Of a stretch of 64,000 bases of DNA, positions 3,327 through 49,400 are shown piece by piece. This stretch comes from Parapristionchus giblindavisi (taxonomy: Eukaryota > Nematoda > Chromadorea > Rhabditida > Diplogasteridae), in assembly GCA_943737045.1 (NCBI GenBank), contig CALSFV010000223.1, positions 434,001-498,000 of the forward strand, written 5' to 3'. The notes below the pieces were generated by a model. It did not search any database. It was not told the DNA's origin and saw nothing but the letters and a program-made list of their open reading frames with translations. Position 1 is the stretch's first letter; the number at the start of each line of letters is the position of its first letter. Made by a program: the position numbers and the translations under genes.

Positions 3327-3447
3327 AAGAAGAAATAAGAAATAAGAAAAATAGTTTTGAAATAACAGAGTTGATCACAGCGAAAAGGCACTACTTCAGA
3401 ATAGGGTACCAGTCCAAAATAATAGTATAATTTAAAAAAAAACTTAC

Positions 3448-3492
3448 TCTTCGCGGTTGCTTGTCAGGCTTGTTCGGGGTCTTGGCGTCCAT
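3448..3492 (-). pseudogene. Orphan first exon of a fourth kinase copy
   Basis: Reads MDAKTPNKPDKQPRR followed by GTAAGTT, identical in protein to exon 1 of the third kinase copy (46,472-46,516) and preceded by the same conserved upstream block. A MITE fragment (about 3,387-3,434) interrupts the intron, and homology to the right arm stops near 3,360. No further kinase exons are visible out to position 1. Either the rest lies beyond the window or the copy was cut off at the palindrome boundary. Confidence 0.7.
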
Positions 3493-3725
3493 TTCTATAA
3501 GATATTTCTATATCGTAAATGTAAGGCAGGGCGAAGACTGACCACTTGGAGAGCGAAACGACCGACTTCGAGGTTGAATACAACTTGAAATGCAATGAAA
3601 GGAATGATTCGTAACTAATTATTGCGCAGCCAAATTTGAATAAATAATGCAAATCCATGTTCACATGTTTATCACGATTTGTCTTGTTTAGTGCATAAAA
3701 GCCCAATGCATTTCAAATATTTATT
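3493..3725 (-). promoter_or_regulatory. Conserved kinase upstream block (copy 1)
   Basis: About 230 bp directly upstream of kinase exon 1 are conserved at four places (here, 26,529-26,760, 31,885-32,115, 46,240-46,471). It holds an ATTTGCAT-like octamer, the phrase AACCTCGAAGTC and a pyrimidine-rich stretch just before the ATG. Conservation between the inner and outer pairs suggests promoter plus 5' UTR function; no experimental evidence. Confidence 0.5.
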
Positions 3726-4126
3726 TAATAAGACAAATGTAAAGTGAGGAGCTCATGTTTTAGGTTAGGGTGGAGGTCTTTTTTAGCTGGGGTGCGCGCT
3801 ACTCCCACACGATGGTGCAGAATATACGGCGCACTCCACGAGGTGGGCTCTGTAAGCTATTAGTTATTACCTATAGTATTACTCCATAATTTGTTGTGCT
3901 GTCCATACACAGAGAAAAGCGCAAAAACCAGTGAAGTGTTGTAATAATAATAATGCTAATAGCTTACAAACCTAATAGCTAAGAGCTTACAAACCTAATT
4001 AATTAATTTAATTAATTTATCTACGCCCGAGGCGCAACGAGACATGAGAAAAATAGAAGAGATAAAGAACATGATATAATATATTATATTGTTGACTCTC
4101 CAGACTGGCGGGCGGGGGGGGGGAAT

Positions 4127-4995
4127 TTACAAAGGACGTAATTCGTGAATGATGGGGTGATGGGTAAGCCGGTTTTTGAATATACTGGGATTGGGTGATG
4201 AAGTGATGAGTGGAGGTAATCGGGAGTACCATCTGGCCGTTCGAACAGGAAAGGAGTGGAATCGGGCAGTGCTTGTGGTCGCTTCGATATGGATGCCGAA
4301 TGAGGACGTTCGATCTCGTAAAGGTTTGTATAAATAAAAAGATGAGCGATCGATAATGGTGGAACCGGACATAATCGAATAACACATACAAAGGTCACTA
4401 ATGACTCTCCTCTCAACTAACGCGCGCAGGCCTAGGGTTTTCATCCGATCATTGTAGGAGGGCATAGATTCAGGATATGTAGGGGAGGGGAAACAACGGT
4501 AGAAAACTTGACGAGTGAAAGTGTGTTGAACATTCTCAAGGGAACGAATATCGGAAAGGTAATGTGGATTCCAAAAGGGTGAAGCGAAGTCAAGGAGGGG
4601 TAATACATAGGTTTTATAACATTTGACAAGGATTTCAGGGCAATTAACGGGGACGGCTTTAAAAAGGAGAAACATCTTGTTACGAGCTTGTTGAGCACGG
4701 GTTTTGACAGAGGAGGTATGCTTTAAATCAGAACGAACTTGGACACCTAGATCACGAACATTATTAGACAGGGGGAGGGGTATTGAGTCAATATGGTAAC
4801 GATTGGTTTGTGACTGTGAGCCTATTCGAATGTGTGAACATTTGGAAGCAGAGATAGACAACTGGTTGGCATTAGACCAGTTATACAAACAATCGAGAGC
4901 AAGTTGAAATTCGGAAGTAAGAGCATCACGATCCTTACGGTTATAGGAAACATACAACTTAACGTCATCAGCATAACATTGCACTTTTACATTAT
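4127..4995 (-). pseudogene. Retrotransposon ORF2, C-terminal part
   Basis: Continues the same protein on the other side of the inserted element: VKVQCYADDVKLY contains the catalytic YADD, followed by the thumb and a C-terminal region with a Cys/His-poor end. The reading frame is continuous with the 9,206-7,315 part if the insert and one 4-bp target copy are ignored, so the retrotransposon was probably coding-intact when hit. Confidence 0.85.
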
Positions 4996-7314
4996 CACGG
5001 GTCTCCTGTAAAAGTGTAGCAAAATCGGCCTGTTCTGCCACTAGGAAAATTTTTTTGTCTCCGATTTCGACGAAAGTCCCTTGGTAGATGTGGTTGGGGG
5101 TTATGAGAAGGCCTAGATACTTGATTGGGCCAAAATCGCTGATTATCGATTTTTTGTGACCTACCACATAAATGATCATAACTCGGTCAATTTTGATAGT
5201 ACAGTGAGCTGAATGGTGTCATTCGAACCATATTCTACAGCTCTTCAAAAAAGTTGTTTATGACCTGTTCGCTGCTTGGTCGTCTTTAGGACGAAAAACG
5301 CGAAAAACTCTTTTTCCTATCAAAAAAGTGAAGTTTTCTCGAAAATGTTTTCTTGGGGATATCCGTTTTATTGCAAAAATTATGTCTACAAACCACGCTC
5401 AATATCGCTATCTAGTTCATTGCCCATATCTCCTGGCCCCTAATGTCGATTACTAGTATAGCTCACGGACTTAGTCGATTTTTGATCATTTTCGGTTTTT
5501 TGATCGTATCTCACTTCAAAGTTATCCAATTATTTTTTCAAAAAAATAGAAATGATTCTCTCGAAAAGGAGATTGAAAAGTTTAATATTGTCCAAATTGC
5601 TATATCAAGCCGTTTTCGAGTTATTAAAGGAAAACTGCTCCTATTTCGATTTTTCACCGCTTTCATGTGTTGAACAGGGAAGGCAATCAATTCTACAAAT
5701 ATGTTTACTTTACAATAAAAACTGTAATATAATTGAGCAAATATTGTGCAGATATCAACGTCACTGGTCAAATACGAGGGTAGTTGATAAGTCCTGGGCG
5801 TCGTCCGAGAACAAAGTGTTCATCTCTGAATGCATCCAATCATAGATCGCATCCGAGGAGACTGTCAGATCATTCTCGTGCACCTGTACTTCATCCTCAA
5901 CCCCTCCTCCCTCTTCATCGCATTCCTCCTCCCAGTCCTTGATGAAATCAATTGCCAGTGCCGCATCTCTTCGAGCTCTCGACTTGCCCTTCTTCTCCGC
6001 CTCCTCCTTCTTCTTCGCGAGAAGGGTCCGAATGCAGTTCTTTATCTGATCGTGGGACATCCTGTTTGCTGGAATGATATCCGTCCTGGCCTTCATTCTC
6101 TTCTCGACTTCTTCTGCTCTCAGCTTGTTTCTTGCAGCGTAGAACTCCTCGAAGAGATCCACCACCATCTGCTTGGCAACGGGGTCGTAGGGTGCACTCT
6201 TCTTCCGAATGCGAAGTGCCCATCCTATGGGTCGCGGATGCTTTGGTGCATGTTCGTATTCCTTGAACGATTCCGATAGGGGACCGATTCCGACTCCTTG
6301 CTGAACCTCCTCGAGCATTCTCTTGTACAGCCCAAGGGCGAAATCCATCATGGACACTCTCTCGGGTCTAATCTTGTGTTCTCCTTTGTCCCAGTGACGC
6401 TCAAGGTTCCAGTGACGGAGGAAAGTGGCCGAGCATTCACTGCATATGAAAAGTGGATTCGGGGCAGAGTCGGAGACGGGCGCGGGAGCCTTTCCAGTCA
6501 CAACTTCATCATCTACGTTATCGGGCATCATTTACGTTATTGGCAGATAGAGAAGAGGATAGGGGAGTTCACGAACAAATACAATACATGAAAAAACAGA
6601 ATAAATCAAACTATTATTATCTTGAGAAAGCAATATGGCCTCTGTTCAACACATGAAAGCGGTGAAAAATCGAAATAAGAGCAGTTTTCCTTTAATAACT
6701 CGAAAACGGCTTGATATAGCAATTTGGACAATATTAAACTTTTCAATCTCCTTTTCGAGAGAATCATTTCTATTTTTTTGAAAAAATAATTGGATAACTT
6801 TGAAGTGAGATACGATCAAAAAACCGAAAATGATCAAAAATCGACTAAGTCCGTGAGCTATACTAGTAATCGACATTAGGGGCCAGGAGATATGGGCAAT
6901 GAACTAGATAGCGATATTGAGCGTGGTTTGTAGACATAATTTTTGCAATAAAACGGATATCCCCAAGAAAACATTTTCGAGAAAACTTCACTTTTTTGAT
7001 AGGAAAAAGAGTTTTTCGCGTTTTTCGTCCTAAAGACGACCAAGCAGCGAACAGGTCATAAACAACTTTTTTGAAGAGCTGTAGAATATGGTTCGAATGA
7101 CACCATTCAGCTCACTGTACTATCAAAATTGACCGAGTTATGATCATTTATGTGGTAGGTCACAAAAAATCGATAATCAGCGATTTTGGCCCAATCAAGT
7201 ATCTAGGCCTTCTCATAACCCCCAACCACATCTACCAAGGGACTTTCATCGAAATCGGAGACAAAAATTTTTTCCTAGTGGCAGGCGTTGCTACACTTTT
7301 ACAAGAGACCCGTG
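4996..7314. mobile_element. Foldback DNA transposon inserted in ORF2
   Basis: Ends are CACGGGTCTC and GAGACCCGTG with target copy TTAT at 4,992-4,995 and 7,315-7,318. The arms, about 4,996-5,676 and 6,643-7,314, are close inverted copies; a 76-codon frame is identical in both. The ~0.97-kb core holds only a zinc-finger ORF. No transposase was seen. CAC ends with a 4-bp duplication would fit the CACTA/Chapaev group, but this is a guess. Confidence 0.85.
5761..6531 (-). CDS. C2H2 zinc-finger protein carried by foldback element
   Basis: 256 residues filling the unique core between the inverted arms. One C2H2 finger near the N-terminus (CSECSATFLRHWNLERHW, with a second His after KGE). The middle has GWALRIRKKSAPYDPVAKQ and later MSHDQIKNCIRTLLAKKK, which resembles a region with a 'K-dP-va..M...LT..QI' layout that I recall from invertebrate proteins of unknown function. 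The C-terminus is strongly acidic. Not a transposase by any motif seen. It may be a captured gene or an accessory DNA-binding protein of the element. The frame is intact, although the host retrotransposon is dead. Confidence 0.7.
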   Translation of the reverse strand: MMPDNVDDEVVTGKAPAPVSDSAPNPLFICSECSATFLRHWNLERHWDKGEHKIRPERVSMMDFALGLYKRMLEEVQQGVGIGPLSESFKEYEHAPKHPRPIGWALRIRKKSAPYDPVAKQMVVDLFEEFYAARNKLRAEEVEKRMKARTDIIPANRMSHDQIKNCIRTLLAKKKEEAEKKGKSRARRDAALAIDFIKDWEEECDEEGGGVEDEVQVHENDLTVSSDAIYDWMHSEMNTLFSDDAQDLSTTLVFDQ

Positions 7315-9206
7315 TTATGATATCTAGACAGAGTAGCTGATAAATCAGAGAGATAAAGCGAGAAAAGTATGGGGCCGAGGACGCTACCTTGGGGAACACC
7401 AGAGACAATCGGAAAAGAGTTACTGAGAGTGGAAGATAGTCTAACACAAAAAGATCTATCAGATAGAAAAGATACTAGCCAGTTATACAAACAACCGTGG
7501 ATACCGTAGTGAAGCAATCGTGAGAGTAATTTAGGATAAGGAACAACATCAAAAGCACGTGTATAATCTATGTACACAACATCTGTGACAAGTTTATTGG
7601 AATGGGCAGTGGTCCAATCATTTTGGCATTGTAACAAGTTGGTAACAACACTAGCACCGGAACGAAAACCGTGCTGAGTGGGGGGAATAATGTTGAAACG
7701 GGAGAGATGGTGTACGAGATGGTCTTTAACTATACGTTCCATGGTCTTTGCTGCAGGGGATATAATGGATATTGGTCGGTAAGAGGAGGGGAGGTGCTTA
7801 TCCTTGCCTACTTTGGGAATGGGGGTGATATAGGAATGCCTCCAAGAGGAGGGTACCGTACCTGATATGAGGCTGAGATTGTATATATCAGCGAGGGGGG
7901 TTGATAGGGAACTAGCACATTTGGAGAAAATTATCTGGGGAATGGCATCATGTCCAGTGGAACATGAAGGTTTCAATCTACGGAGGGCTTTATATACGGA
8001 TTGTGGAAATATTGTGAATAATGAGAGAGATGGGGGGATGGGGGAGGTGGAGAGGGAAGGGATACTACCATCATCAATAGTGAAATGTGAGGCAAACTCG
8101 GAAGCAAGTAAATTGGCCTTAGATGATGAGTCTAATACAGTGTCATTGAGGGAATTGCGTAGATCAGGGATGGTGAGTTTGGGCTTAGTGAGATTAGATA
8201 CATGTCTATATAAATCACGGGAATTAAGGAGTTTCTTACGATTACAGAAACGGGTCCATTTGTTGATTTCAAATAATAGGTTCTTGCTACATTGGTCAAA
8301 GAGGAACTTAACAGAAGGTATATGTATCTTAGAGAATAATGCATTACGATGTTTCATAAGGCGAATGATATGAGGGGGGTAGGACATGAAAGGTGGTCTG
8401 GGGGTACGATAGGGAACAAAAGAGTCTATGGCAGAATGAACTACAGACACGAAAATGGAATAGACGGTATCAATGTGGGTGCAGTCACGGAACAGAGACA
8501 ACCAATCAATATTGGCGAAGTGGTTGTTCAGGGCAGGGTAATCAACACGACTGTAGTCACGGATCTTAGGAGGAGAAGAGGGAGGGAGAGGGAAGGAGAG
8601 GGAGAAAGATATACCAGAGTGATCAGATGTTGGGAAAGGGGGAATGACGAATACGGCCGAAATTAATGTGGTGTCACTAGCTAGAACCCAGTCGATCATT
8701 CTATCGCCGCGCGTTGGAGACAAAAGTACATGAGAAAGACAAGATGAATCAACAAAATCATGGAAAAGACGATCAATGAGAGGGGGTGGAGGAGTATGGT
8801 GACGAATCAAACAATCAACATTAAAGTCGCCAATGATCAGAGTTGGGTAAGGAGACGAGGCATGTAAATCAGAGAGAGTGGCAATGAGGGATTCGGACTT
8901 AGCAGTCGAATAACTGGGAGGTCGGTAGGTCAGAATGAGCCGAAAATAAGAGGAATCATGGTAAAGATCAATACATAGAATCTCATGGTCGGAAGAGATG
9001 GGTACGGTGGTGTAAGGAATGAAATCTCTAATGGCTACGGCTATTCCGCCACCACGAGAAGGTCGATCACGTCTGACTATTGAATATGGTAATGAACCGG
9101 TAATAAGTGAAGATGGTGTTTTACTGGTTAACCATGTCTCACAGAGAAGAACAAGATCAGGCTGGGATGAGGACAGATAGGCTCGGAAACAATCGGTCTT
9201 ATTCAC
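7299..9206 (-). pseudogene. Retrotransposon ORF2, N-terminal part (endonuclease + RT)
   Basis: Codes 635 residues, the last few from the inserted transposon. The apurinic-type endonuclease motifs are LLCETWL, IGDFNVD and SDHSGI. RT motifs follow: SSYRPISI, TQHGFRSGAS, VVYIDYTRAFD (first catalytic Asp) and GVPQGSVLGPILFSLYLSDL. The frame breaks at 7,314, just before the YADD box, where the foldback element inserted. Confidence 0.88.
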
Positions 9207-9265
9207 TAGAGAGCGAACATTAAAGTAATGACAGTCAAGGTTATGCGGTACGGACTCGGGCGAGC

Positions 9266-10030
9266 TTAGTTTAAAGTGAGGACAGTCGGGCCGGTAGAAG
9301 TACCAGCGGGAGTCTGAGCAACTGAGGCATTCTTGACCGTACGACGACGAGCAGTAGATCGGGATCGCGATCGATTACGGTTCTTGATGGATCCGATCAG
9401 GGTTCTCTCGATGATCTGGTTAGCATAGACAACGACATCTCTTCCTTGGCTTCTTTGCTCACGGCATTTCAATCGGAGTTGATAGGCTGCTTCACGCTCT
9501 TCACGGGTTTGGGAGGGACGGATGAACAGAGTGGAGTAAGTGGGATGGGCACGAATCTTACGGGCATTGGCAAGGAAATGAGATTGGGCACTACGGGTAT
9601 GGAAAGTGACTTTGAGAAGACGAGGGCGATTCTCACTTCGCACTCCCATACGGAAAACAACTGAGGGAGTCTGCTCAAGCTCAGTGATATCGCATAGCTC
9701 GATTATACGTGTCAAATCATCATTGACACGATCACTAGCCTTGTCATGTACAGACTCAGGAAGGCCTTGGACAACAACACTCCGCTCCCTCTTGTCCCTC
9801 TCTATGCATTCATCGATCAAGTTCATTGATCTCGCATTCAAGAGGGATCGGAGGTTCTCGACACAAGTACCAATGATCATAGCCATAGGGCTATTTCTAT
9901 CACCATCAGGCAACTTGGCCAAGAACTCCTCCATCTTTGAAACGAGTTGGGAGGGGGCGGAAATGTCGTCATCCACCTCTTTACGGAAAGTGGAAGGAGA
10001 ATCGATAGGGGGACGTTTAGGATCAGACAT
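9266..10030 (-). CDS. Retrotransposon ORF1 protein
   Basis: Encodes 254 residues. The middle has the RRM-like phrase of ORF1 proteins (SVVVQGLPES, then RPRLLKVTF), followed by a basic Arg/Ser-rich tail (NRNRSRSRSTARRR) suited to RNA binding. It lies directly upstream of ORF2 with a gap of about 60 bp. Expected to coat element RNA in the ribonucleoprotein. Intact frame. Confidence 0.8.
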   Translation of the reverse strand: MSDPKRPPIDSPSTFRKEVDDDISAPSQLVSKMEEFLAKLPDGDRNSPMAMIIGTCVENLRSLLNARSMNLIDECIERDKRERSVVVQGLPESVHDKASDRVNDDLTRIIELCDITELEQTPSVVFRMGVRSENRPRLLKVTFHTRSAQSHFLANARKIRAHPTYSTLFIRPSQTREEREAAYQLRLKCREQRSQGRDVVVYANQIIERTLIGSIKNRNRSRSRSTARRRTVKNASVAQTPAGTSTGPTVLTLN

Positions 10031-10157
10031 ATAGATAGGAAGACAAAAGGAAATTCAAATTAAGTAACGTTAAGTTAACAAGTAATTAACTAGATCGACT
10101 GGGAGTTAAGAAATAAACAACAAAAATAGAGAGAGAAACGGGAACCGACCACTTCCC

Positions 10158-10249
10158 AAGTGATCAGAGAGAGGAGAGTGATCAGAGAGAGGAGAGTGAT
10201 CAGAGAGAGGAGAGTGATCAGAGAGAGGAGAGTGATCAGAGAGAGGAGA
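10158..10249. repeat. 18-bp tandem repeat in retrotransposon 5' end
   Basis: About five units of GAGAGAGGAGAGTGATCA run from 10,158 to 10,249. Tandem monomers at the 5' end are usual for non-LTR element promoters, so this is probably the element's promoter/5' UTR. Confidence 0.85.
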
Positions 10250-10466
10250 GAAAAAACCTAATAACCAATAGCTTACAGAGCTAATAGTTAATAGTTAATA
10301 GTGAACTATGTTCACAGAGTGCAAACGACTGTGTAAATGTACAATATGTTTGCCATGCCAAACAGAAGGAGCAAAAAAACTGAAAGAACTTTGCTCGAGG
10401 GTGTATAAAAGACACGGTGAAGGTGAATGAAGACATCAGTTTTCAGCTGAATCAACTACTTCTACA

Positions 10467-10891
10467 ATGAACTCTAAGATGTAAGTTCAGTACTTCTTTA
10501 TTCATACAGTAATCCATTACTGTATCCCCTAATGCAGATCCCCAATACAGTATCCCCTAGTACAGTACCCCTAGTAAAGTATTCCTTTCAGTGTCCTTAT
10601 CTTCACTTTCCTTGCTGTCCTTGCAAACCTATCATCTTCCCAATACATTGCGGTAAGCATCACAAATCAATGCCATTGCCAATATCTCAATAATCAATCA
10701 ATATCACAATTCAGGCCTACCCATCAACTTACGTTTCTCCCTATGGAGCTTACTATGGTTACCCCAGACTCGGATACTCAGCCTGGGGATATCCCGGATA
10801 TACCGCGTGGTGGGGATCCAACAGAAATGGAGCTTCAGAAGCTGCCCCTAGTGAGGGAAGTCCCGCCCCTTCTGGATTGACTCGTCAATAA
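10467..10891 (+). CDS. Small secreted Tyr/Gly/Trp-rich peptide, copy 1
   Basis: Three exons, 10467-10480, 10592-10652 and 10715-10891, encode 83 residues. Residues 1-23 form a classic signal peptide (hydrophobic IVLIFTFLAVLA core, then LSSSQ). The mature part repeats Tyr-Gly-Tyr-Pro and Ala-Trp-Gly units (YYGYPRLGYSAWGYPGY, then TAWWGS) and has a polar Ser/Pro/Ala tail. The composition resembles nematode fungus-induced (FIP), caenacin and NLP-type antimicrobial peptides, but no orthologue is claimed. A TATAAAA box at 10,404-10,410 stands 57 bp before the ATG. It converges on the kinase gene ending at 13,490. The retrotransposon inserted about 210 bp upstream of the ATG (junction 10,253), so its promoter may be shortened. 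Confidence 0.88.
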
Positions 10892-11127
10892 GAAGAATTA
10901 CGATCTACGACTACAATCTGACTGTATCATATTATGGCGAACGAATATTGATTACGATTTTTGATTGTTTAGAATTAAAGGAATTTCTATGCTTTGATAC
11001 AAATATTTGCAAAAATATATAAGATAAATTCAAAAATACATAATCGATGCCTACAATCGACTCAACTAGTGAATGTCACCTAACTAGGGAACAGTATTCT
11101 TCCCGGATGAATCTACGGGAAGTGACC

Positions 11128-11860
11128 TACGCAGTAGGGCGGCGAGAATTGCTCTCGAATGAGCCTGTTTTGTAGTCTCTATCGAGTCGAGGTCAAATGG
11201 AGAGGATATTCGTTCCCCTTGGCAGTCTCTATCTCTCTCCCTCGGATAATCGTTTTTAGGTCGAATCGAAGTCGAGTCGAGCGTTTTTCAAGGCCGTGTT
11301 TGAACAAAACTAGACAAATTATGCATATTTGAAATCAGCATAACGAGATCTTTAAAATGATAGACAATTCGCATCAAATAATTCAAATTCAAATTTCTCT
11401 TTTTCTTTGATGAGTACCGTATCCCAATACAGTAAATGGGATATGAGTGAGATTGAAGAGTTTGAATCTGATGACGAATTGGAACTTTAATAATAGTTTT
11501 GCCATAATGATTGTTATCAAATTAATATTATTATTGTATCATAAACCAACAAATTATTAACAAAACATTTTTTGAAAAAAATTGTTAAATTTGGCTTCGT
11601 TTTATAGCACTTAATGAGCTCATGTCAGAAGTTTAAAAAGTTTTGAATTTGGTCAATGCAGCGCTGAGAAAAACCTTTCCATTCGATTTCGACTCGACTG
11701 TTTTTTGACTATTCGAGACCATGACCCCCTCTCCCGGCTCATTCGATGAGAGAGAGATCGTAAATGCCTCTCTCCCCGATAACTCGGCCAAGACTGCCAG
11801 TGGGAACGAATACTCTTGCGCCATTCTTGCCACCCTACTACGCAGTGATAATCAGCATAG
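11128..11860. mobile_element. Diverged foldback element
   Basis: Imperfect inverted ends (CTACGCAGTAGGGCGGCGAG and GCCACCCTACTACGCAG) and shared inner phrases such as ATTCGTTCCC. No gene seen. Lies between the left peptide gene and the tRNA-like element; not in the right arm. Confidence 0.6.
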
Positions 11861-11985
11861 TCGACTTAGACAAATTCAATTTTCAAAGTCTGCTATTTAT
11901 CGATTTTGTAAATGTTAACCCTGTCTCATATCCGCCGCACGATAAATAACTTTTCACAGGCGGAGATGTTGTCTCTATTGTCAAC

Positions 11986-12057
11986 CTGACCGTGGCGTAG
12001 TGGTAAGCGCGCGGACTCATCACTTTTTGCACACGGGTTCGATTCCCCCGATAACAT
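11986..12057 (+). pseudogene. tRNA-like sequence with A and B boxes
   Basis: A perfect A box (TGGCGTAGTGG, 11,993-12,003) and B box (GGTTCGATTCC, 12,036-12,046) stand at normal tRNA spacing. A 4-bp D-stem can form, but the acceptor and anticodon stems do not pair. The anticodon region contains CTCATCA, as in a Met-type tRNA. A second copy of its 3' part lies inverted at the other end of the foldback element (B box 13,054-13,064). It may be the pol III head of a short retroelement or a tRNA gene captured by the element. Confidence 0.5.
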
Positions 12058-13053
12058 TTTTTGTCTCTATGTAATTCAAGCAAAGAAATTGCTGTTTCAA
12101 TGAAAATCAAGTTCAAAAATCAATTTCTTTCTGTTTTTGCAACTTTTTCAACTGTATCTCATTTTTATTTGATGTGTCTATAATATTTTCAGGAGCAGGA
12201 ACTTTCATAATCCACTTGAACATATTTATATGTGTTGTACAGTCCCGCACGTTCGCGCTCCCTAAACGCGGCCCCACGCGGCCCGCGGGGGCCGCATCAT
12301 GCCGCATCGGTGAATAATTTTTTTCAAACATCTCATTGGTTGTGATCGTTGTATCATCAGATAATATTAATATCACTGCAGAAACGAAAATTTTTGGTTG
12401 AGTGTGGACAGCGTCGCACGTTCGCCCTCCCTAAACGCGGCAGGTTGCGCCCCCCCCCCCCCCCGCGGCCCGCTGCGTGCCGCATCATGCCGCATCGATG
12501 AATATTTTTTAAAACAATTCGTTGTTTTTGATGGTTGCATCATCAAATAAAGGTGCGGACATGATGATGCAACGATCGCAAACAAATGAAATGTTTCAAT
12601 TAAAAAAAATTATTCATCGATGCGGCATGATGCGGCACCCCGCGGTCCGCGTGCCGCGGGGGGGGGGGGGGCGTTTAGGGAGCGCGAACGTGCGGGACAG
12701 ACATGCTTATCGTGGTGGGAGTCAGTCATGCCAACTCATGGGTCCCCTTCTTTAATGGGTGTCACTGCAAAGGTAGTTTCTGCCTTTTTGAAATTGGAAT
12801 TGAAATTGAAAATGTTGAAATTCGCATATTTATAATTAATTGGTTGAATATTTATGTTAATGTTTTCAATAATTTCGATAAAGTTTTTATTAATTTTTTT
12901 TCTTCATTATTTGCAGATTTGCAACAAGGTAAAGATAACAAAAGACAGTTGAAAAAGTTGCAAAAACAGAAATAAATTGATTTTTGGACTTGATTTTCAT
13001 TGAAACAGCAATTTCTTTGCTTGAATTACATAGAGACAAAAAATGTTATCGGG
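12053..13053. mobile_element. Foldback element with GC-rich triplicate
   Basis: Inverted ends of about 100 bp (TTTTTTGTCTCTATGTAATT and complement) join tRNA-like sequence at both outer ends. Inside, a GC-rich block (GCACGTTCGCGCTCCCTAAA, then GCCGCATCATGCCGCATCG) occurs three times: 12,240-12,310, 12,413-12,500 and inverted at 12,617-12,698. Left-arm specific. Confidence 0.7.
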
Positions 13054-14383
13054 GGAATCGAACCCGTGTGCAAAAAGTGATGAGTCCGCGCGCTTATAAC
13101 AATGAAATCGTAGTACACTCCCCGTGTCCGGTACTCTCTCCCACCGTTTTCCTTTCGTTTTTTTTGTTTTCATGAACACTACATAAAATCGAATCGAATC
13201 AAATCGGCACTCCAAATTTCTGAGACAAGTCAGGAGACCAACATGCATGCTCTTGATAATAGTGTTCAAACTGTAATACAGATAAAACCAATATTGTCAT
13301 GCTCCTTTAAACAAATTTATACTATTCTTTGAGATAAAACTCAACATCACGCTGCACAGGGGACAATCATTACAAAAAGGATGAAGGATAGACACGATAT
13401 ATCGAGGTATACGGTAGTAGATTAATATTGATCGATAATATGTATACGGTAGTAGATCAATCGATAATCGTCTATTTATTCTCTTTGTCCTAGCCACGAA
13501 GACTCTTCCATGCGAAGGTAAAGTCGGGACGATCTTCCGGTGCCTTAATTAATTACTGCGTAAGTTTATAATCTTTTCAAAATTTATTTATTCCAATAAG
13601 TTTTGCTCACAATCAAAGCAAAATCCAGAAAATTGATCCCTGACGGAAAAATTCAATTAGAGTTAAAGTAATGAAAGAATGGTTTTAAAGTAGGTTGTGT
13701 TAGAAAAGAAACTATGTAAAGACTTAATATCTAGAGATAAAAACGATCCAGTGTTTCGGCCCTGGTCCTAGACACTAGACCGGCCCGTGTGGGATGGGCC
13801 TCATCAGTAGATATATGAAGGACTGATTCCGGCACTTGATGAAAAGGAATTATTCATAATTTTAAAAGGAATTTCTCTGTGAATGTACCTAGTAGTTAGT
13901 ATGCAATAGGTTGTGCTCAAATCTTGCCGAAAAGAAAAGAAAAGCAGATAAAATTCTACATTTTTCATATACCCTGTAGGCTCTTTTCCTTTTCGTTTCG
14001 AATCTTTTGAACAGGGCCCACGAAGCTTGCGTCATGCATGACATACAAGGAGAATTTCGGGCCAAAGACTGACGAAGCTTCATGGGCACAATCCCAATTC
14101 TTACAATTTAATGATCTCTATCAAGCGCGGAACCAATTGGGAAGGAATGAGTGCAACTAAACGACTGATCAGTCTGGGCGTGCTGAGGTTCCATACAACC
14201 CGGTCTTCATGGATAGTGTTGTTTTAAGGAAAGAAACTAACGATAGCAACACAGTCCTTGTACAATGTAGCGAGAGATTTAGGCATCTTCTTTTCCGGTG
14301 GGAAGGGAAACATCTTCGATTCAATCTAAACATTTATTAATTAATTAATTTAAAAAAAATTTTTATGCCTTATTCGTCCTTAA

Positions 14384-16413: not shown

Positions 16414-16498
16414 TACTTTATTCCTATCTGGCCACTTTTTGTGATCGGTCGTTCTTCTGTTCTCTTCATTTTCCTTCGCTCTCTTGTTTCCTTGAGAG

Positions 16499-17432: not shown

Positions 17433-17451
17433 CTTGAGAGAACAGAAATCA

Positions 17452-39700: not shown

Positions 39701-39955
39701 CGCAATAAATAGCGAAATACACGTTTCACTCTTCAATTCCACTCTTTCCTATTTCTGCTACCTCTCGCTCAAACCCGTCTGGCATTCGCCTCACTCCTTT
39801 TGTATCGTAACGCACTCCTTTCACTCGAGCGCTGTTGAAAAGGAAGATGTTCTGATAGCCTAATTTCATTTCATTTATAACACATTTATCAAGAGTTCGC
39901 AAAGATGAGGACTCTGGTGTGCATGGAATTCCAATTCTTGCACTTGGCTTCGCTT

Positions 39956-40426
39956 ATGCAGTGTTCAGAACTTGGAAAATGCACAAAAACGCGGAAAATG
40001 CTGTTCAGAAGTTCAGCCGGAAAATGCTCTGAAAATGCTCATTTTCGAGGATTTTAAGCAAATTTTAATGGTATTTTTGTTTAATATAGACGTTTATGGG
40101 TCGCAAACAGTGTTGTAGACGCATTTTATTGATGATAAGTGATAATTTTAAATATGGACTCGTTAAGTTGATTTTTCGCTGCATTTTCTTTGATTTTCGG
40201 CTTAAATTGCTCAAAAAAGGACCATACGTTATTTATTTCAGTAGCATACTTTATAAATGACCTAATTTAGTTGTTTTCCAAGAAAAAAACGAGTTTCAAC
40301 GCTTTTAAAGTGCTTTTAAAGTGTCTTTTTCGAGCCAAAATCGAGCATTTTCGGGCATTTTCCATTTGAACTTCTGAACAGCATTTTCTGCATTTTCTTG
40401 CATTTTCCAAGTTCTGAACACTGCAT
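39956..40426. mobile_element. Foldback MITE (ATGCAGTGTTCAG ends), right arm
   Basis: Palindrome partner of 17,667-18,137 with the same inverted ends. It was present before the arms duplicated. Confidence 0.75.
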
Positions 40427-40557
40427 TAGTAAGCTGCATCCAACAGTCTTCCGAAAGAGGTCGCTCTTCTTGTGGGGTGTCTAATAGTCTAATACTCGAA
40501 TGTAACTCTCGAATTTAAAGAATGGCTGTCCATCCAGAGTAGAGTTGGCTATTCGGG

Positions 40558-40805
40558 GGTTGCGGGCCCGCAATGAATTGACTTTTCATTGCTAGTGATT
40601 GCGGGCCCGCAATGCGGCGTAAAATCATTGCGGGCCCGCAATGATTTCTGTTCTCTCAAGGAAACAAGAGAGCGAAGGAAAATGAAGAGAACAGAAGAAC
40701 GACCGATCACAAAAAGTGGCCAGATAGGAATAAAGTAGTCATTGCGGGCCCGCAATGCTATTGCGGGCCCGCAATGATTTATATAGCATTGCGGGCCCGC
40801 AATGC
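40558..40805. repeat. 18-bp perfect palindromes, right arm
   Basis: Six copies of the ATTGCGGGCCCGCAAT palindrome within 250 bp, irregularly spaced. One copy (about 40,755) is extra compared with the left arm. Confidence 0.85.
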
Positions 40806-41528
40806 TTGAGCGTTATTGCCAACCCTAATCCAGAGTGCTCTCAAGTTCATTAGAGCAGCTCTCTTTCACCCTTACTGCACGCTCTAAACCAACGTGAAGT
40901 GACGAGCATGTCACTACTGTATTAATTATTAAATTATTAATTATTAAACTATATGACTTTCCAGACTCTGTGGTCACTTGTTCAGAGGAAAGTACAAGAC
41001 TTCGGTTCGTCGTAAATTCATTTTTACTTTTAAATAAATAAATATATCGTATATCGAAAAATGATTGGATCACGATTCGTAAACCATTCTGAATCATTGT
41101 ATTTATTCAACGGCGATCATGGTCTTTTAATTTAAAAAAAAAATATTTGAATTAAGGCTGTTTCCGACTGGACTCGATGTATGATCAGACAATGCACATT
41201 CGTACATCTGTCAGATGAGAATGTCAAACAGTTCTTAGATGTGAGTGAATCGGCTAACATATTTTTGAAAATCTGCTAATCAACACAAGTTTGTGTCATC
41301 TTGGTCAATAATCTGCTAAACAACACAAGTTAAATAATGTAATTGTAGGAGCGATATATCCTGTTGCACTATCCGCACGAACACATTATTACGATGCTCG
41401 GATATTGCTACAAGGAGAGACCCTTTCTCAGTGTCTATGAATTTCTGCGTCGTCCCCTCAAGGTACATTTTAAATCTCGTAAAAAACAGAATTCAATCGA
41501 AATGAAAAATCAAAATCACAGAGATTAA

Positions 41529-41741
41529 TATTATCCGTATAAATGCATAATTGCATTGCTACTGCTGCTAAACAGAGGAAGAACTATCGATTAACTCCCC
41601 ACTCTTTCCTCCTTTCCTTCCTCGCTCTCACTGATCTACCTACTCTCTCACCGGTGTTCTCTCTCTAAACATAGAAATTCATTGTGGCAGTGGTTGGCTA
41701 CTCTCGTACCAAATAAACAAGTGTATTTTATACGGTCAATA
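41529..41741. mobile_element. MITE (TATTGACCGTATAAA ends), right arm
   Basis: 213 bp, ends TATTATCCGTATAAA and TTTATACGGTCAATA. The left arm has the uninterrupted sequence (near 15,632), so this copy inserted after the arms formed. Relatives lie at about 20,100-20,285, 37,760-37,985, 44,660-44,860 and 59,663-59,892. Confidence 0.8.
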
Positions 41742-41872
41742 ATGATTGTGCTTTTATTGATCTTTTTGTTTAAGAGATTCGTCATTGTAAAACCGAACAT
41801 TACTGTAGAAGAGCTCGATAGGATCTCCATGGAAGTGCTCTCAGCAATGAACTTCCTACAGGAAAACAAGGT

Positions 41873-42490
41873 ATTGTCGTCTGGGTGCGGTAACCAGGGT
41901 ACTGTATTTCGGGTACGATCACAGGGGTACTGTAGACCGGGTACGGTCACCAGGGTACTGTATTTCGGGTACGATCACCAGGGTACTGTATTTCGGGTAC
42001 GATCACAAGGGTACTGTAGACTGGGTACGGTCACCAGGGTACTGTAGTCCGAGTACGGTCACCAGGGTACTGTATTTCGGGTACGATTACAAGGGTACTG
42101 TAGACCGGGCACGGTTGCCAGGGTACTGTATTTCGGGTACGATCACCAGGGTACTGTATTTCGGGTACGATCACAAGGGTACTGTAGACTGGGTACGGTC
42201 ACCAGGGTACTGTAGTCCGAGTACGGTCACCAGGGTACTGTATTTCGGGTACGATTACAAGGGTACTGTAGACCGGGCACGGTTGCCAGGGTATTGTAGA
42301 CCGGGTACGGTCACCAGGGTACTGTATTTCGGGTACGATTACAAGGGTACTGTAGACCGGGCACGGTTGCCAGGGTATTGTAGACCGGGTACGGTCACCA
42401 GGGTACTGTATTTCGGGTACGATCACAAGTGTACTGTAGACAGTATCTGGTACGGTAGTCAGGGGGGGTGATGGCGAGGGTACGGTAGCC
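41873..42490. repeat. Intronic minisatellite, right kinase
   Basis: About twenty-one units of the same repeat (GGGTACTGTATTTCGGGTAC and variants) at the same intron position. The array is roughly twice the length of the left one and has higher-order duplication of 2-4 unit blocks. Confidence 0.88.
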
Positions 42491-44367
42491 ATCCAGATTA
42501 AGATGGTTTTTTTAGATTGTCCATCGCAATGTTTGTTCGGATAGTATCGCTCTCACTCATACAATGAAGGTCAAGCTCCATTCGTTCGGAAATGCTTTCA
42601 TCGGACATACACTGCAGGTTATAATAATATTAATAATATTATTATTAATATTAATAATAAGTTATATATTATTTTTTTTTGTTTCTGTCTGTATGAAAAG
42701 GATCATAAATTGCTGAATGTTTGCAGACGAACGACAAGACTGGCATCAACGTCAACTACATCGCACCCGAAGCCAGAAAGAAGGTTACATCGGTTTATCG
42801 ATTCCTAGATCGATATATTATGATTCAGGGAGTGTACACGGTGAAAAGTGACGTGTGGGGATTTGGAATGTTCCTTTGGGAGCTGTTCTATCGATATAAG
42901 GAGGACCCTATCAAGGAGCTGGATCTCGTTGAAGCGGTTAGTTTTGTGTCTATTCAAAAGTAGCAAAAATGGGAAAAGTGGGGCCAGAAATCGATGAATA
43001 TGGTGTCGAATATTGCTTATATTATATGGTAATTGGCGTGAGGGACAATGGGAAATTGAGAGAGTCAAATATGAAAAGGGGACGTTCTCTCTCTCTCTAC
43101 ATGCCTTAGAAGTTGTACTTTCAATACGACTGGCAAGCTTGAAACAGATCATGAATCAATATCAAATATGCCTATCGTGTGACTTTAAGGACGAATAAGG
43201 CAAAAAGTTTTTTTTTTAAATTAATTAATTAATAAATGTTTAGATTGAATCGAAGATGTTTCCCTTCCCACCGGAAAAGAAGATGCCTAAATCTCTCGCT
43301 ACATTGTACAAGGACTGCGTTGCTATCGTTAGTTTCTTTCCTTAAAACAAAACTATCCATGAAGACCGGGTTGTATGGAACCTCAGCACGCCCAGACTGA
43401 TCAGTCTTTTAGTTGCACTCATTCCTTCCCAATTGGTTCCGTGCTTGATAGAGGTCATTAAATTGTAAGAATTGGGACTGTGCCCATGAACATTCGTCAA
43501 CCTTTTGCCCGACATTCTCCTTGTATGTCATGCATGACGCAAGCTTCATGGGTGCTGCTGTGTTCAAAAATTTCGAATCGAAAAGAAAAGAGCCTACAGG
43601 GTATATGAAAAGTGTAGAGTTTTCTCTGCTTTTCTTTTCTTTTCGGCAACATTTGAGCACAACTTATTGTGTACTACTATTCACAGAAAATTACTTTTAA
43701 AATTAGGGAATAATTCCTTTTCATCAAGTGACGGAATTCCTTCATATATCAGGGAATTTTTCCGTCAGGGATCAATTTTCTGGATTTTGTTCTGAGCAAA
43801 ACTTATTGAAATAAATAAATTTTATATAATAAAGTGATTAATTAAGGCTCCGGCAGACCGTCCCGACTTCACCTTCGTATGGAAGACTCTTCACTGACGA
43901 GAACAAGACCAAAGAGAGTAAATAGACGATTATCGATTGATCTTCTACCGTATACCTCGATATATCGATCGATATTGGTCTACTATCATATACCAATTAT
44001 CGATCAATATTAATCTACTACCGTATACCTCGATATATCGTGTCTATCCTTCATACTTTTTTGTAATGATTGTCCCCTGTTCAGCGTGATGTTGAGTTTT
44101 ATCTCGAAGAATAGTATAAATTTGTTTAAAAGAGCATGAAAATACTGGTTTTATCTGTTTTACAGTTTGAACACTTTTATCAAGAGCAGGCTCTGATATG
44201 CATGTTGGTCTCCTGACTTGTCTCAGAAAAGTTAGAGCGCCGATTCGATTCGATTCGATTTTATGTGGTGTTCATGAAAATAAAAGAAACGAAAGGAAAA
44301 TGGTGAGAGAGATCATAATCAATATTCGTTCTTCATAAAATGCGACACTAGGGGGTCTTATAGTCAG

Positions 44368-44649
44368 TAGGGATCCGCAAATGTGCATTCGTGCGAAATG
44401 ATTTTCAAAATGAAAATGAAAGAAAAGTCGTGCGCACGACTTCATTATTATAATTAAGTATTCATTCGTTCAAATTAATGCATTCGATTCATTCTGATCA
44501 TTTTTATTCATCAAATTGGTGGTTGGTCTGTCATTTGCATGCATTACATCGCACGAAAAAATGCGTCTTAATTGTGCAGAATGACTTTTCATTATTTTTG
44601 TTTCGTTCATGCTCGTACCGGCTGTGCATTTGCACGAATGCGATCCCTA
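44368..44649. mobile_element. hAT-like MITE, right arm
   Basis: 282 bp with ends TAGGGATCCGC and GCGATCCCTA between 8-bp copies ATAGTCAG (44,360-44,367 and 44,650-44,657). The subterminal TGCATTCGTGC is also inverted. Located 3' of the right-arm kinase; absent from the left arm. Confidence 0.85.
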
Positions 44650-45172
44650 ATAGTCAGTATAAAATGTTCTTGTAGAATTGCCTTGCTATTGACTACTAAA
44701 CAGAGAAAGAACTACCCTCCCTTCCTTCCTCACTCTCTCTGATCTACCTACTATCTCACTTGTGCTCTCTCTCTCTCTCTAAGCATAGAAATACATTGTG
44801 GCTGTGGCTGGCTAATCTCGTACCAAATAAACAAGTGTATTTTATACGGTCAATACCATTGCATTGTCATCTCACACGCATCTCACCTCAGGATTCACCA
44901 AAATCTACAGTGATCTACTACATACTTTTTGAGAGGGCCATCAAAATCTGCGAAGAAGAAAAAAGTATGTACTAGAATCACTCAACACTTAGGCGACATT
45001 CACTAGTTGAGTCGACTTTACACATCGATTATGTATTTATCTTATATATTTTTGTAAATATTTGTATCAAAGCACAGAAATTCCTTTAATTCTAATCAAT
45101 CAAAAATCGTAATCAATATTCGTTCGTCATAATATTATACAGCCAGCTTGTAGTTATAGATCGCAATTCTTC

Positions 45173-45583
45173 TTATTGACGAGTCAATCCAGAAGGGGCG
45201 GGACTTCCCTCACTAGGGGCAGCTCCTGAAGCTCCATTTCTGTTGGATCCCCACCACGCAGCGTATCCGGGATATCCCCAGGCCGAGTATCCAAGTCTTG
45301 GGTAACCATAGTAAGCTCCATAGGGAGAAACGTAAGCTGATGGGTAGGCCTGAATTGTGATATTGATTGATTATTGAGATATTGGCAATGGCATAGATTT
45401 GTGATACTTACCGCAATGTATTGGGAAGATGAAAGGTTGGCAAGGACAGCAAGGAAAGCGAAGATAAGGACACTGAAAGGAATACTGTACTAGGGGATAC
45501 TGTATTGGGGATCTGCATTAGGGGATACAGTAATGGATTACTGTATGAATAAAGAAGTACTGAACTTACATCTTAGAGTTCAT
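45173..45583 (-). CDS. Small secreted Tyr/Gly/Trp-rich peptide, copy 2
   Basis: Palindrome partner of the gene at 10,467. Exons 45570-45583, 45412-45472 and 45173-45349 have the same 14/61/177-nt pattern and encode 83 residues with a signal peptide. Residue 55 is Ala here (GYPGYAAWWG) where copy 1 has Thr and copy 3 has Arg. A TATATAAG box lies near 45,636-45,650. Convergent with the right-arm kinase gene; divergent from the third kinase copy. Confidence 0.88.
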
Positions 45584-46239
45584 TGTAGAAGTAGTTGATT
45601 CAGCTGAAAACTGATGTCTTCATTCACCTTCACCGTGTCTTATATACTACCCTCGAGCAAAGTTCTTTCAGTTTTTTTTTTGCTCCTTCTGTTTGGCATG
45701 GCAAACATATTGTATATTTACACAGTCGTTTGCGCTCTGTGAACACAGTTCACTATTAGCTATTAACTATTAGCTCTGTAAGCTATTAGCCATTAGCTTT
45801 GATAAGCTATTAGCTCTGTAAGCTGTTGATTATTAGCTCAATAAGCTCTTAGCTATTAGGTTTGTAAGCTATTAGCTCTGTAAGCTATTAGTTATTAGCT
45901 ATAGTATTACTCCATAATTTGATGTCCTGTCCATACACAGAGAAAAGCGCAAAAACCAGTGAAGTGTTGTAATATTTAACCCTTTTTGAACTAACACAGA
46001 AAAAGTGTTAGATATAACACTTCACAGGCCCTATCTGCTGTGGGTTACACTGTTTTCTCTGTGTGTGTGTGGGGGGGGGGTGAGCCGGAGAGACCAAATC
46101 CTGTGTCGCCTCAACTTCCACCTCGTGGAGTGCGCCGTATATTCTGCACCATCGTGTGGGAGTAGGGCGCACCCCAGCTGAAAAAGACTTCCACCCTAAC
46201 CTAAAACATGAGCTCTTCACTTTACATTTGTCTTATTAA

Positions 46240-46471
46240 ATAAATATTTGAAATGCATTGGGCTTTTATGCACTAAACAAGACAAATCGTGATAAACATG
46301 TGAAAATGGATTTGCATTATTTATTCAAATTTGACTAAGAGATGATTAGTTACGAATCATTCCTTTCATTGCATTTCAAGTTGTATTCAACCTCGAAGTC
46401 GGTCGTTTCGCTCTCTAAGTGGTCAGTTTTCGCCCTGCCTTACATTTACGGTATAGAAATATCTTATAGAA
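46240..46471 (+). promoter_or_regulatory. Conserved kinase upstream block (copy 4)
   Basis: Block before the third kinase copy. It lies between the divergent peptide gene (TATA near 45,640) and the kinase ATG at 46,472. Confidence 0.5.
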
Positions 46472-49400
46472 ATGGACGCCAAGACTCCGAACAAGCCTGA
46501 CAAGCAACCACGAAGAGTAAGTTCTTTCGCTGTGATCTACTCTGTTATTTCAAAACTAGCGGTCTACTTAAGACACCGGCTCAGTAAGATTCGAGGGTTG
46601 AGCCACTGACCCCGGACATCGACCTCACCGATTTGGTTCAAAATTTTTTTGTGGATACCCCTATGAGCCCCCATCACCAAATGGGTATTCATTAGGGCTG
46701 GATCCTTGAAACACAGAAGTGGCGGGTTCTCGAAATTTGAAAACTCGATTTTCGCCAAAAAAAAGTGGAGCGACCTAGGTCCCATATTAGTGTGGAATAA
46801 TTACTTATATGTCTATGCAACAAAAACTCGCTATTGGACGGTCCGGATATCCGATCGCAAACTGATTTTTTAACCTTCTCAAAACATTCTAAATTTAATT
46901 TAAATTTTAAAACAAAAAAAACGGCAGCCCAATTTTAGACTCATTTTATAGAGCAAAAAATTCCACATCGAATAAGGCAAAAAAATCAAAAATCGATCGA
47001 CCCGTGTTTTGAGATAAATGAACCTGAAGATGACCCGAAAATATTTTTGTTTTCAAACCCCCTCATGTTTGTACTCAAATTGAAGAGCTCGTCGAGTACA
47101 ACAACTTTCACGTTGAACGTTTTGTCTGAAACTCATGTACAAGAGAAATACATCTGTTTTATTTATTCTCACAGTTTTTCAGTCAATTTAGAGTAAATCG
47201 AAAGTAAAATATTTTTTGTGCACAAAGTGATTACGCCTATATTGTAGAACTCAAAAATCCATACTTAATTAGTTGTTTCACGAAAAAAAATTGTTGACCC
47301 CTATGCTGAAAAACATGGCCTCTAAAGTGGTCATGAAAAAAAAGTTGTCGAAACCTTGCCATATTTATACTCATTCTAAAGAACTCGTCGAGCACATCAT
47401 TTTTCACGTTGGTCGTATTCTATGAAAGTCCTTTGTTCTCAAGATACAAGCGATACAAAATATTTGGATCCAATAAATTTTAATTCATGTATTTCTCTTG
47501 TACATGAGTTTCAGACAAAACGTTCAACATGAAAGTTGTTCTACTCGACGAGCTCTTCAATATGAGTACAAACATGAGGGGGTTTGAAAACAAAAATATT
47601 TTCGGGTCATCTTCAGGTTCATTTATCTCAAAACACGGGTCGATCGATTTTTGATTTTTTTGCCTTATTCGATGTGGAATTTTTTGCTCTAAAAAATGAG
47701 TATAAAATTGGGCTGCCGTTTTTTGTTTTAAAATTTAAATTAAATTTAGAATGTTTTGAGAAGGTTAAAAAATCAGTTTGCGATCGGATATCTGGACCGT
47801 CCAATAGCGAGTTTTTGTTGCATAGGCATATATGTAATTATTCCACACTAATATTGGACCTAAGTCGCTCCACTTTTCTTTGGCGAAAATCGAGTTTTCA
47901 AATTTCGAGAACCCGCCACATCTGTGTTTCAAGGATCCAGCCCAAATGAATACCCATTTTGTGATAGGGGCCCATGGGGGTATCCACAAAAAATGTTTGA
48001 GCCAAATCGATGAGGTCGATGTCCGGCACTACCTGGAATCTCACTGAGCCGGTGTCTTAAATTACTTCGTTGACTTGAAGTTTACTGCAATTTTACTGCT
48101 AGTGAAGGAACTTTTTTGATGAAATGCATTACAATATTATACACCAGTTGAAGTAATCTCACGTATATCACAAGTAGCCTTGAAGTTCTACTTCAAGTAG
48201 GAATGATAAGCAGACTACTAGTTTTGAAATAGCAGAGTACTGTTTGAAAAACTCCGCAATGACCTAACTCTCGTTGTTCGCTAGAGATTCATCACTTTGA
48301 GTTCGATAAACGTTGACAAACGGTTTGTCGTAAAACGTGACGTCACAAGATTATTCTAAAGATCCCCCCCCCCCTACTCTTGTGGCGTCACTTCTGCCCT
48401 CCGCCTTTACTTGTCACGTCACAGTTATCTACACATACTTGTCACGTCACAGTTATCTACAAATCGTTCGTCAACGTTTATGCGTACCGCCATGATGAGC
48501 ATTGAGAGTACTCATGGATTTGCGCTTTCAGAATCCTTCTCGTGAGGGTGGAGCTTTGAAGAAGATGGGAGCTCGACGAGACTATAGTCCTGCCCAGAGC
48601 GAGTGAGTACATTGCGCGTAAGATCTCGAGTTGCTACGTGGTAGTACGTGTTAGTACGGCTTGGTACGTGTTAGAACGTGTTATCCATGTAATATCATGC
48701 TATCTTACACGTTTAAATATGCTTTTCACTATCTCATTGGAGGTCTTTAGTAAGAACTAATAATGGCTGGTGTTCAGCCGCACCTTATCTGTATTCTTTC
48801 AAAAATGAAACGGAATTTGAATATTGACCATAAAACAACTTTTCTTGCATATGTTTAGATGAAAATGAATTTGAATAATGAATTGCAAGTGCTCGTGTGT
48901 AGTTCATGTTGTAGTGTAATATAGATGTTTTGATGAATTTTAGCAAAGGAACCCCTCAATCGGACGAAGGTTCCACCAGAGATAACATGAATCTATCGAA
49001 ACGACTCTCAGCTGGTGAGACATTTAAAAATCTATGTGAATGACTTTTTGCTAAAATAATAATAATAATAATAGAAATATTAAAAATGTTCAATATGTTC
49101 AATAGGCTTGTCCAATACAAAATGTAAATTAAATTAACATTAAAGAGAAGGACAAGAGCATGAAGCGTGACCAAGAAACAGCTATGGAGAATAATGAGCC
49201 TGTTATAGACCCGAATCGGATTGTCGATCACGAGGTAATGTTCTAGCGCTTATCGCCATTATTAAGTATTAAATATTATAATTATAGCTTTATGTGGGTT
49301 TACGAAAAGTATGAGAAATACAGAGAGAATACATTAGAGGCACGTGAAAATAAAATACATTATTAGTCGACAAGCTGCTGTTATAAGAGAGACTATCTCT

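What the first reader, a model, noticed from the sequence alone, without database searches (positions are those of the whole stretch)
3360..46556. A ~43-kb palindrome carrying two outward-pointing kinase/peptide gene sets
Both arms carry the same genes in mirror order around a 393-bp spacer. Large gene-bearing palindromes can recombine, form hairpins, and keep their arms alike by gene conversion. The sharp inner junctions (29,127/29,521) and many arm-specific insertions argue for a real, aged structure. A head-to-head misassembly of two haplotypes is the main rival.
Basis: partly seen in the sequence, partly recalled or inferred. Interest (0 to 1): 0.85.

Follow-up and report, generated by a model that had tools for sequence, protein, structure and literature searches.

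The report
Worm palindrome with patchily matched arms
A roundworm chromosome carries a stretch and its mirror image side by side, and parts of the two halves look recently copied onto each other while other parts drifted apart; this is a clear example of a process already known from worms and sex chromosomes.

Summary
The inverted repeat is real in the sequence: left arm 3360-29130, right arm 29518-46556, spacer 387 bp. It lies inside a 1.22-Mb contig of a 251-Mb assembly that looks like a diplogastrid nematode. The flanks are not homologous and the arms differ by 7-9% in places, so neither allelic head-to-head joining nor a fold-back read explains it; no reads could be checked. The best evidence is a mosaic: noncoding divergence between the arms is 8.6%, 0.08%, 7.2%, 0.07%, 2.3% and 0.3% in successive tracts, and the longest identical run is 2,599 bp against about 520 expected. 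That is the mark of an old inverted duplication partly overwritten by arm-to-arm gene conversion. Each arm carries an outward SH2-tyrosine-kinase-like gene (HRD is HRN, DFG is SFG: probably a pseudokinase), an inward Tyr/Gly-rich peptide gene, a tRNA-Gln and, at the axis, a scrap of a Maverick-like element. The right-arm kinase has a premature stop. The spacer is a patchwork of two repeat pieces and part of a packaging-ATPase gene. C. elegans has inverted repeats kept alike in a similar way, so this is a new member of a known kind.

The parts
3360..29130 (+). left arm of the inverted repeat (includes a left-only LINE of about 6 kb)
29518..46556 (-). right arm of the inverted repeat
29128..29392 (.). 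spacer piece 1: 265-bp internal fragment of an element with inverted ends, 100% identical to 4 other genomic copies
29458..29535 (+). fragment of a Maverick-like packaging ATPase gene (residues 201-226 of a 233-aa ORF at C583, 88% identical), running from the spacer into the right arm's inner end
28920..29105 (+). left-arm tail of an ORF that neighbours that ATPase elsewhere (53% identical over 60 aa), pointing at the axis
29543..29728 (-). right-arm copy of the same ORF tail
14242..19947 (-). left-arm SH2 + tyrosine-kinase-like gene, 13 exons placed (5' end not settled), pointing outward; HRN and SFG in place of HRD and DFG
38150..43327 (+). right-arm copy of the kinase-like gene; premature stop in exon 3
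10578..10891 (+). left-arm Tyr/Gly-rich small peptide gene (two exons read by eye, signal-like start), pointing toward the axis
   Evidence: no Pfam match
44989..45800 (-). right-arm copy of the peptide-gene segment
27198..27269 (+). left-arm tRNA-Gln(CTG)
31375..31446 (-). right-arm tRNA-Gln(CTG)
19675..20483 (.). diverged island between two near-identical tracts (55 substitutions in 804 aligned bp against the right arm)
20484..23410 (.). homogenised tract (2 substitutions in 2,925 aligned bp)
16014..19674 (.). homogenised tract (2 substitutions in 2,384 noncoding aligned bp); contains a left-only insertion of about 0.94 kb
25789..29127 (.). mostly homogenised tract next to the axis (10 substitutions in 3,335 aligned bp)
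49061..60690 (+). third, older copy of the kinase/peptide unit, same orientation as the right arm

Best explanation
This is a genuine, old inverted duplication of a kinase/peptide gene unit. SHOWN: the arms, the make-up of the spacer, the further copies and the tract mosaic. INFERRED: (1) the unit, already present in more than one copy, was duplicated in inverted orientation next to the right-arm copy. The junction fell inside a decayed Maverick-like element and now holds transposon fragments: the right arm's inner end continues into sequence that follows the same ORF elsewhere in the genome, while the left arm stops 22 bp after the ORF's stop codon. (2) Free divergence reached about 7-9% in noncoding DNA. 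(3) Arm-to-arm gene conversion, favoured by the short spacer and adjacent inverted arms, then overwrote several kilobases in events of different age and left unconverted islands. The arms were homogenised by recombination rather than by selection on sequence: the identical tracts are mostly noncoding, and one of them contains a kinase exon with a premature stop on one side only.
For: Inverted collinear arms. Noncoding divergence by tract: 8.6%, 0.08%, 7.2%, 0.07%, 2.3%, 0.3%. Longest identical run 2,599 bp against a mean of 523 bp; reached in 0 of 5,000 random placements. Fisher p = 5e-35 and 2e-32 for the island against its two neighbours. Flanks not homologous. Among the 40 candidates scored, only two full-length copies of the 17.4-23.4 kb core in the assembly, both here, so no uncollapsed haplotig was seen. 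The ATPase piece that crosses the spacer/right-arm junction is present beside relatives of the ORF at 5 of 5 other contigs whose DNA was fetched (C66, C583, C312, C234, C211; 5 of 7 loci, since the two short C211 loci L045 and L046 gave no hit; C291, C525, C23 and C267, also listed, were not fetched). L-R kinase exons: 17 differences in 363 codons, dN/dS 0.078, plus one stop in R.
Against: No reads, no second individual and no related genome were available, so spanning molecules, depth and conversion in a population are untested. Assembler or polishing homogenisation of near-identical repeats could exaggerate the 100% tracts, though it would hardly spare a 7% island between them. The 2.3% tract (24.0-25.8 kb) overlaps a repeat family with many genomic copies (query 215-1490, window 23.6-24.9 kb), so its divergence may not date the arms. 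Random placement as a null ignores real variation in mutation rate.
Confidence: 0.85

Rival explanations
1. Two haplotypes of a single locus were joined head to head by the assembler.
For: Arms differ by substitutions, indels and arm-specific insertions, as divergent haplotypes do; heterozygosity can also be patchy.
Against: Allelic joining predicts mirrored homologous flanks; none found (also the 144-kb self-comparison, inverted hits of 400 bp or more). Tracts of 7-9% beside tracts under 0.1% would be an unusual haplotype mosaic. No further full copy of the core among the candidates scored.
Confidence: 0.08
2. Two true paralogous copies from separate places were wrongly joined at the repeat-rich spacer.
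For: The spacer is made mostly of dispersed repeat pieces.
Against: The repeat pieces are about 265 and 56 bp, short beside long reads; the window has no N. The sequencing and assembly method is unknown, so this is not excluded.
Confidence: 0.04
3. Recent duplication only: the identical tracts are simply young and the diverged islands were brought in by conversion from other paralogues.
For: Other paralogues exist (third, fourth and C508 copies).
Against: Arm-to-arm divergence in the outer part and in the island is similar (8.6% and 7.2%), as expected of one event age. Where the island overlaps blocks shared with other copies, both arms are about equally distant from them: fourth copy 86.5% (L) and 86.0% (R), and 76.9% and 77.8%; third copy 75.6% and 76.7%. 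No known donor is closer to one arm.
Confidence: 0.08

Closest known systems
Long inverted repeats of paralogous gene pairs in Caenorhabditis (Zhao et al. 2007, PMC1803023; parts 1 and 2 of 4 of the text read)
   Same: Nematode, adjacent paralogues in mirror order, arms more alike than expected, gene conversion proposed.
   Different: The two examples read in detail there are gene pairs whose intergenic arms are 160 and 124 bp; here the core arms are about 11-16 kb with a visible tract mosaic. Conservation of the structure across species was not testable here.
hsp-16 inverted repeat and other adjacent inverted paralogues of C. elegans (review PMC3966223; passages read)
   Same: Short unique spacer (416 bp there, 387 bp here), gene conversion between inverted modules.
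   Different: The hsp-16 repeat is 3.8 kb in all (title of a cited paper); here the arms are far longer and carry arm-specific insertions.
Sex-chromosome palindromes with arm-to-arm gene conversion (e.g. PMC8981503, PMC3403216; search listing and start of abstracts only)
   Same: Large gene-bearing palindromes homogenised by gene conversion.
   Different: PMC8981503 states arm identity above 99%; here homogenisation is partial. Which chromosome this is, is unknown.
Fes/Fer-like and other SH2-containing tyrosine kinases
   Same: SH2 followed by a kinase fold (PF00017, PF07714); BTK, Fes and ABL1 are among the best solved relatives.
   Different: Catalytic HRD is HRN and DFG is SFG in 5 of 5 copies with complete motifs.
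Maverick/Polinton virus-like transposons (family knowledge recalled)
   Same: Fragment of a Pox_A32-type packaging ATPase gene with a convergent neighbour ORF.
   Different: Only a scrap remains in the window; a capsid-like reading of another ORF at C583 is by eye and got no Pfam or PDB match; other Maverick genes were not sought.

Membership tests
Palindrome with arm-to-arm gene conversion | Two long inverted arms about a short spacer | tested here: met
   core arms 17.4-29.1 / 29.5-40.7 kb, spacer about 387 bp
Palindrome with arm-to-arm gene conversion | Homogenised tracts with sharp edges beside diverged tracts, in noncoding DNA | tested here: met
Palindrome with arm-to-arm gene conversion | Arms more alike within a genome than orthologous arms between species | not testable with these tools
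   the genome tool reports that no relatives of this assembly are held
Palindrome with arm-to-arm gene conversion | Conversion alleles seen in individuals or pedigrees | not testable with these tools
   no reads or population data
Head-to-head haplotype misassembly | Outer flanks are mirror-homologous | tested here: not met
   62 inverted hits, longest 356 bp at 69%, none of 300 bp or more at 90% or more
Head-to-head haplotype misassembly | Arms at half the flanking depth | not testable with these tools
   no reads
Fold-back chimeric read artefact | Arms essentially identical throughout | tested here: not met
   303 substitutions in 14,137 aligned columns
SH2 tyrosine kinase | SH2 and tyrosine-kinase domains in one gene | tested here: met
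   PF00017 E=1.9e-6, PF07714 E=7.3e-35, on the left-arm exons joined by me
SH2 tyrosine kinase (active enzyme) | HRD catalytic Asp and DFG Asp | tested here: not met
   HRN and SFG in 5 of 5 copies with complete motifs; in the sixth the HRD region is altered and SFG kept (alignment)
Maverick/Polinton | A32-type packaging ATPase | tested here: met
   a 26-residue fragment only in the window; the ORF it matches at C583 hits PF04665, E=9.5e-9
Maverick/Polinton | Protein-primed DNA polymerase, integrase, capsid genes, long terminal inverted repeats | not tested
   not sought; the window remnant is a scrap

The most novel reading that the evidence does not exclude
In this nematode lineage palindromes may be seeded by virus-like or fold-back elements and then homogenised genome-wide. 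The axis of this palindrome lies inside a Maverick-like remnant. A second, near-perfect palindrome (C211, arms at least 4.9 kb, one substitution and a few small indels outside its centre of about 100 bp) carries the same ATPase end on both arms around a palindromic element. In 12 listed inverted pairs of that element's other copies the two arms score identically, while they are only 80-88% identical to the query. Snap-back replication of such elements could create inverted duplications that pick up host DNA.
Probability: 0.07. Interest if true: 0.75.

Novelty: new member of a known kind. Interest (0 to 1): 0.42.

Why it matters
It is a readable fossil record of arm-to-arm gene conversion: tract lengths, edges and unconverted islands can be read from one genome, in a nematode lineage for which two searches of an open-access library showed me no such report (listings only). 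It also suggests homogenisation without regard to gene function, since one kinase copy carries a stop. Gene counts and ages inferred from identity alone would be wrong here.

Tried and rejected
Rejected: allelic head-to-head misassembly (flank test) and fold-back read artefact (divergent arms).

Rejected: an Argonaute/PIWI reading of the ORF next to the axis, which I suspected by eye; Pfam gave nothing, and its tail proved to be related to an ORF beside a Maverick-like ATPase. Whether the upstream piece (28300-28434) belongs to the same ORF is not shown.

Led nowhere: the protein search with the kinase returned 6 weak hits at 24-27% identity (4 Vitis, 1 Ricinus, 1 unnamed), so species and orthology could not be set from it. 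'inverted duplication' + 'Pristionchus' + 'gene conversion': 0 papers. 'Pristionchus' + 'inverted repeat' + 'gene duplication' + 'assembly': 5 papers, listing only, none read. Wider searches were seen as listings; only PMC1803023 (half) and PMC3966223 (passages) were opened. PDB searches with two ORFs of L048 gave nothing. Search of the C211 piece did not list the query's own place, so its counts are lower bounds.

Rows dropped: the arm alignment covers 13.1-29.13 kb only; outer blocks were judged by BLAST. In one search exons and the minisatellite 15196-15515 were left out of the noncoding rates; exons of unequal length and codons with stops were left out of dN/dS. In-18 matches shorter than 150, 300 or 400 bp were not printed.

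Corrected on re-reading: an earlier count gave an 81-bp centre and start 1354127 for the C211 palindrome; the calls bear out about 100 bp and 1354126. Entry 2 says that 29393-29517 has no match elsewhere; later found matches.
Full report
WHAT WAS CHECKED. The window is bases 434,001-498,000 of a 1.22-Mb contig (C223) in a 251.4-Mb, 703-contig assembly. For the RT-side ORF of the left-arm LINE, the best match is an unnamed metagenome protein (53%); the best hits that bear species names are Pristionchus mayeri (69%), P. entomophagus (65%), P. pacificus (62-65%) and P. fissidentatus (52%) (120 of 577 hits listed). A diplogastrid nematode, probably none of these species, is likely (inference). BLAST of the window on itself confirms collinear inverted arms on both sides of 29.3 kb. 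The inner limits are 29127-29130 and 29518.

MOSAIC. Alignment of 13.1-29.13 kb with its mirror gives 14,137 aligned columns and 303 substitutions. In the inner 11,068 columns the 110 substitutions are strongly clumped: the longest identical run is 2,599 bp; random placement of the same number gives a mean maximum of 523 bp, and 0 of 5,000 trials reach it. Leaving out exons and the minisatellite, divergence is 8.6% (135/1,576) at 13.1-15.9 kb, 0.08% (2/2,384) at 16.0-19.7, 7.2% (50/693) at 19.7-20.5, 0.07% (2/2,925) at 20.5-23.4, 2.3% (40/1,758) at 24.0-25.8 and 0.3% (10/3,335) at 25.8-29.1. The island against its neighbours gives Fisher p = 5e-35 and 2e-32. Purifying selection is a poor explanation for kilobases of identical intron and intergenic DNA beside equally noncoding DNA at 7%. 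Gene conversion explains it.

IS IT AN ARTEFACT? Two haplotypes joined head to head would have mirrored flanks. The 40 kb left of the window plus 1-3359, compared with 46,569-64,000 plus the next 40 kb, share only short repeat matches: 56 direct and 62 inverted hits, the longest 356 bp, none of 300 bp or more at 90% or more. Among the candidates scored, the core has no third full-length copy in the assembly. Fold-back chimeras would give arms alike throughout. Reads were not available.

GENES. The left-arm kinase-like gene runs outward on the minus strand. Thirteen exons in consistent phase, with GT-AG borders in the left copy, give 367 residues with SH2 (PF00017, E = 1.9e-6) and tyrosine-kinase (PF07714, E = 7.3e-35) domains. 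Its first exon is not settled. In the other copies some borders depart from this model: exon 9 lacks AG at the first drawn position in all five, so it probably starts 15 bases later (inference), and a few donors in the far and C508 copies are not GT. In the alignments to EGFR and BTK the catalytic HRD reads HRN and DFG reads SFG; this holds in all 5 copies with complete motifs (left, right, third, far, C508-A), and in the sixth (C508-B, exons 7-13 only) the HRD region is altered and SFG kept. The protein search of the assembly found the family only on C223 (4 copies) and C508 (2), apart from one weak single-exon match on C350. dN/dS between copies is 0.22-0.42, and 0.078 between left and right. 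The right copy has a stop codon in exon 3 inside an otherwise near-identical tract. So the copies were long constrained, and the right one is now probably damaged (inference). Downstream and convergent lies a small Tyr/Gly-rich peptide gene (read by eye, no Pfam match); its segment has copies beside all four C223 kinase units and on seven other contigs, plus a 40-bp match on an eighth. A tRNA-Gln(CTG) lies in each arm.

AXIS. The spacer is a patchwork. Bases 29128-29392 are an internal piece of an element with inverted ends, identical to four other genomic copies and stopping about 25 bp short of the element's end on one side and deep inside it on the other (by eye). Bases 29400-29455 are a piece of a high-copy repeat (36 of 40 listed matches). 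Bases 29458-29535 match residues 201-226 of a 233-residue ORF at C583 at 88%, and that ORF matches the packaging ATPase family Pox_A32 (PF04665, E = 9.5e-9). That this is a Maverick/Polinton gene is recalled family knowledge. The ORF tail next to it, 28920-29099 and its mirror, is 53% identical to the convergent neighbour ORF at C583. At the five other contigs whose DNA I fetched, the ATPase end sits beside relatives of this ORF, so the right arm carries the native continuation and the left arm is the truncated side. The breakpoint thus fell inside a Maverick-like remnant with transposon pieces at the joint. The order of those events is inference.

A SECOND PALINDROME. C211:1,354,126-1,363,999 is palindromic up to the end of the fetched piece, with arms of at least 4.9 kb. 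Of 12 substitutions, 11 lie at 5005-5030 beside the centre and one in the arm proper, with a few small indels. It carries the ATPase end (residues 107-233) on both arms. Its inner 2.1 kb per arm is a palindromic element with other copies on 25 contigs. In 12 of the inverted pairs listed, both arms have exactly the same score against the query, at 80-88% identity; three of these (C110, C114, C397) also score like each other, and at least one pair (C150) differs slightly between arms. Because C211 was found with a query taken from beside the window's own axis, the shared ATPase piece is not independent evidence of a link.

VERDICT. It is a large, well-resolved case of a known nematode phenomenon (PMC1803023; PMC3966223). 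What is less usual is the length, the fossil tracts of different age and the pseudokinase-like cargo.

Noticed in passing
C211:1354126-1363999 (L052 127-10000): A second near-perfect palindrome; its inner part is a palindromic element with other copies on 25 contigs, and in 12 listed pairs the two arms score identically at 80-88% identity to the query.
   Followed up: partly
4017-10100: Left-arm-only LINE (CR1/jockey-like by eye) on the minus strand, its second ORF interrupted by an element with 98% alike inverted ends (4993-5677 / 7317-6642) that holds a zinc-finger-like ORF (5761-6531, by eye).
   Followed up: partly
15196-15515 and 41867-42464: 28/84-bp minisatellite in a kinase intron: about 10 copies of 28 bp left, 20 right, 3 in the third copy, about 1.3 kb of it in the far copy.
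   Followed up: partly
C508:35268-39422 and 55958-59312: Another outward-pointing pair of the same kinase family, some 17-20 kb apart on a 62.5-kb contig, 89-94% alike where paired; the second copy is partial.
   Followed up: partly
3847-3946 and 45875-45974: A 100-bp piece near the outer edge lies in direct, not inverted, orientation in the two arms (97%): perhaps a small local inversion.
   Followed up: no
150-3096: Scattered older similarity to 27.2-27.8 kb, including another tRNA-Gln(CTG) at 911-982.
   Followed up: no
L048 (C583) 616-3159: Maverick-like gene cluster with an A32-type ATPase; 90-100% identical ORFs at C66 (L049) and C312 (L050).
   Followed up: partly
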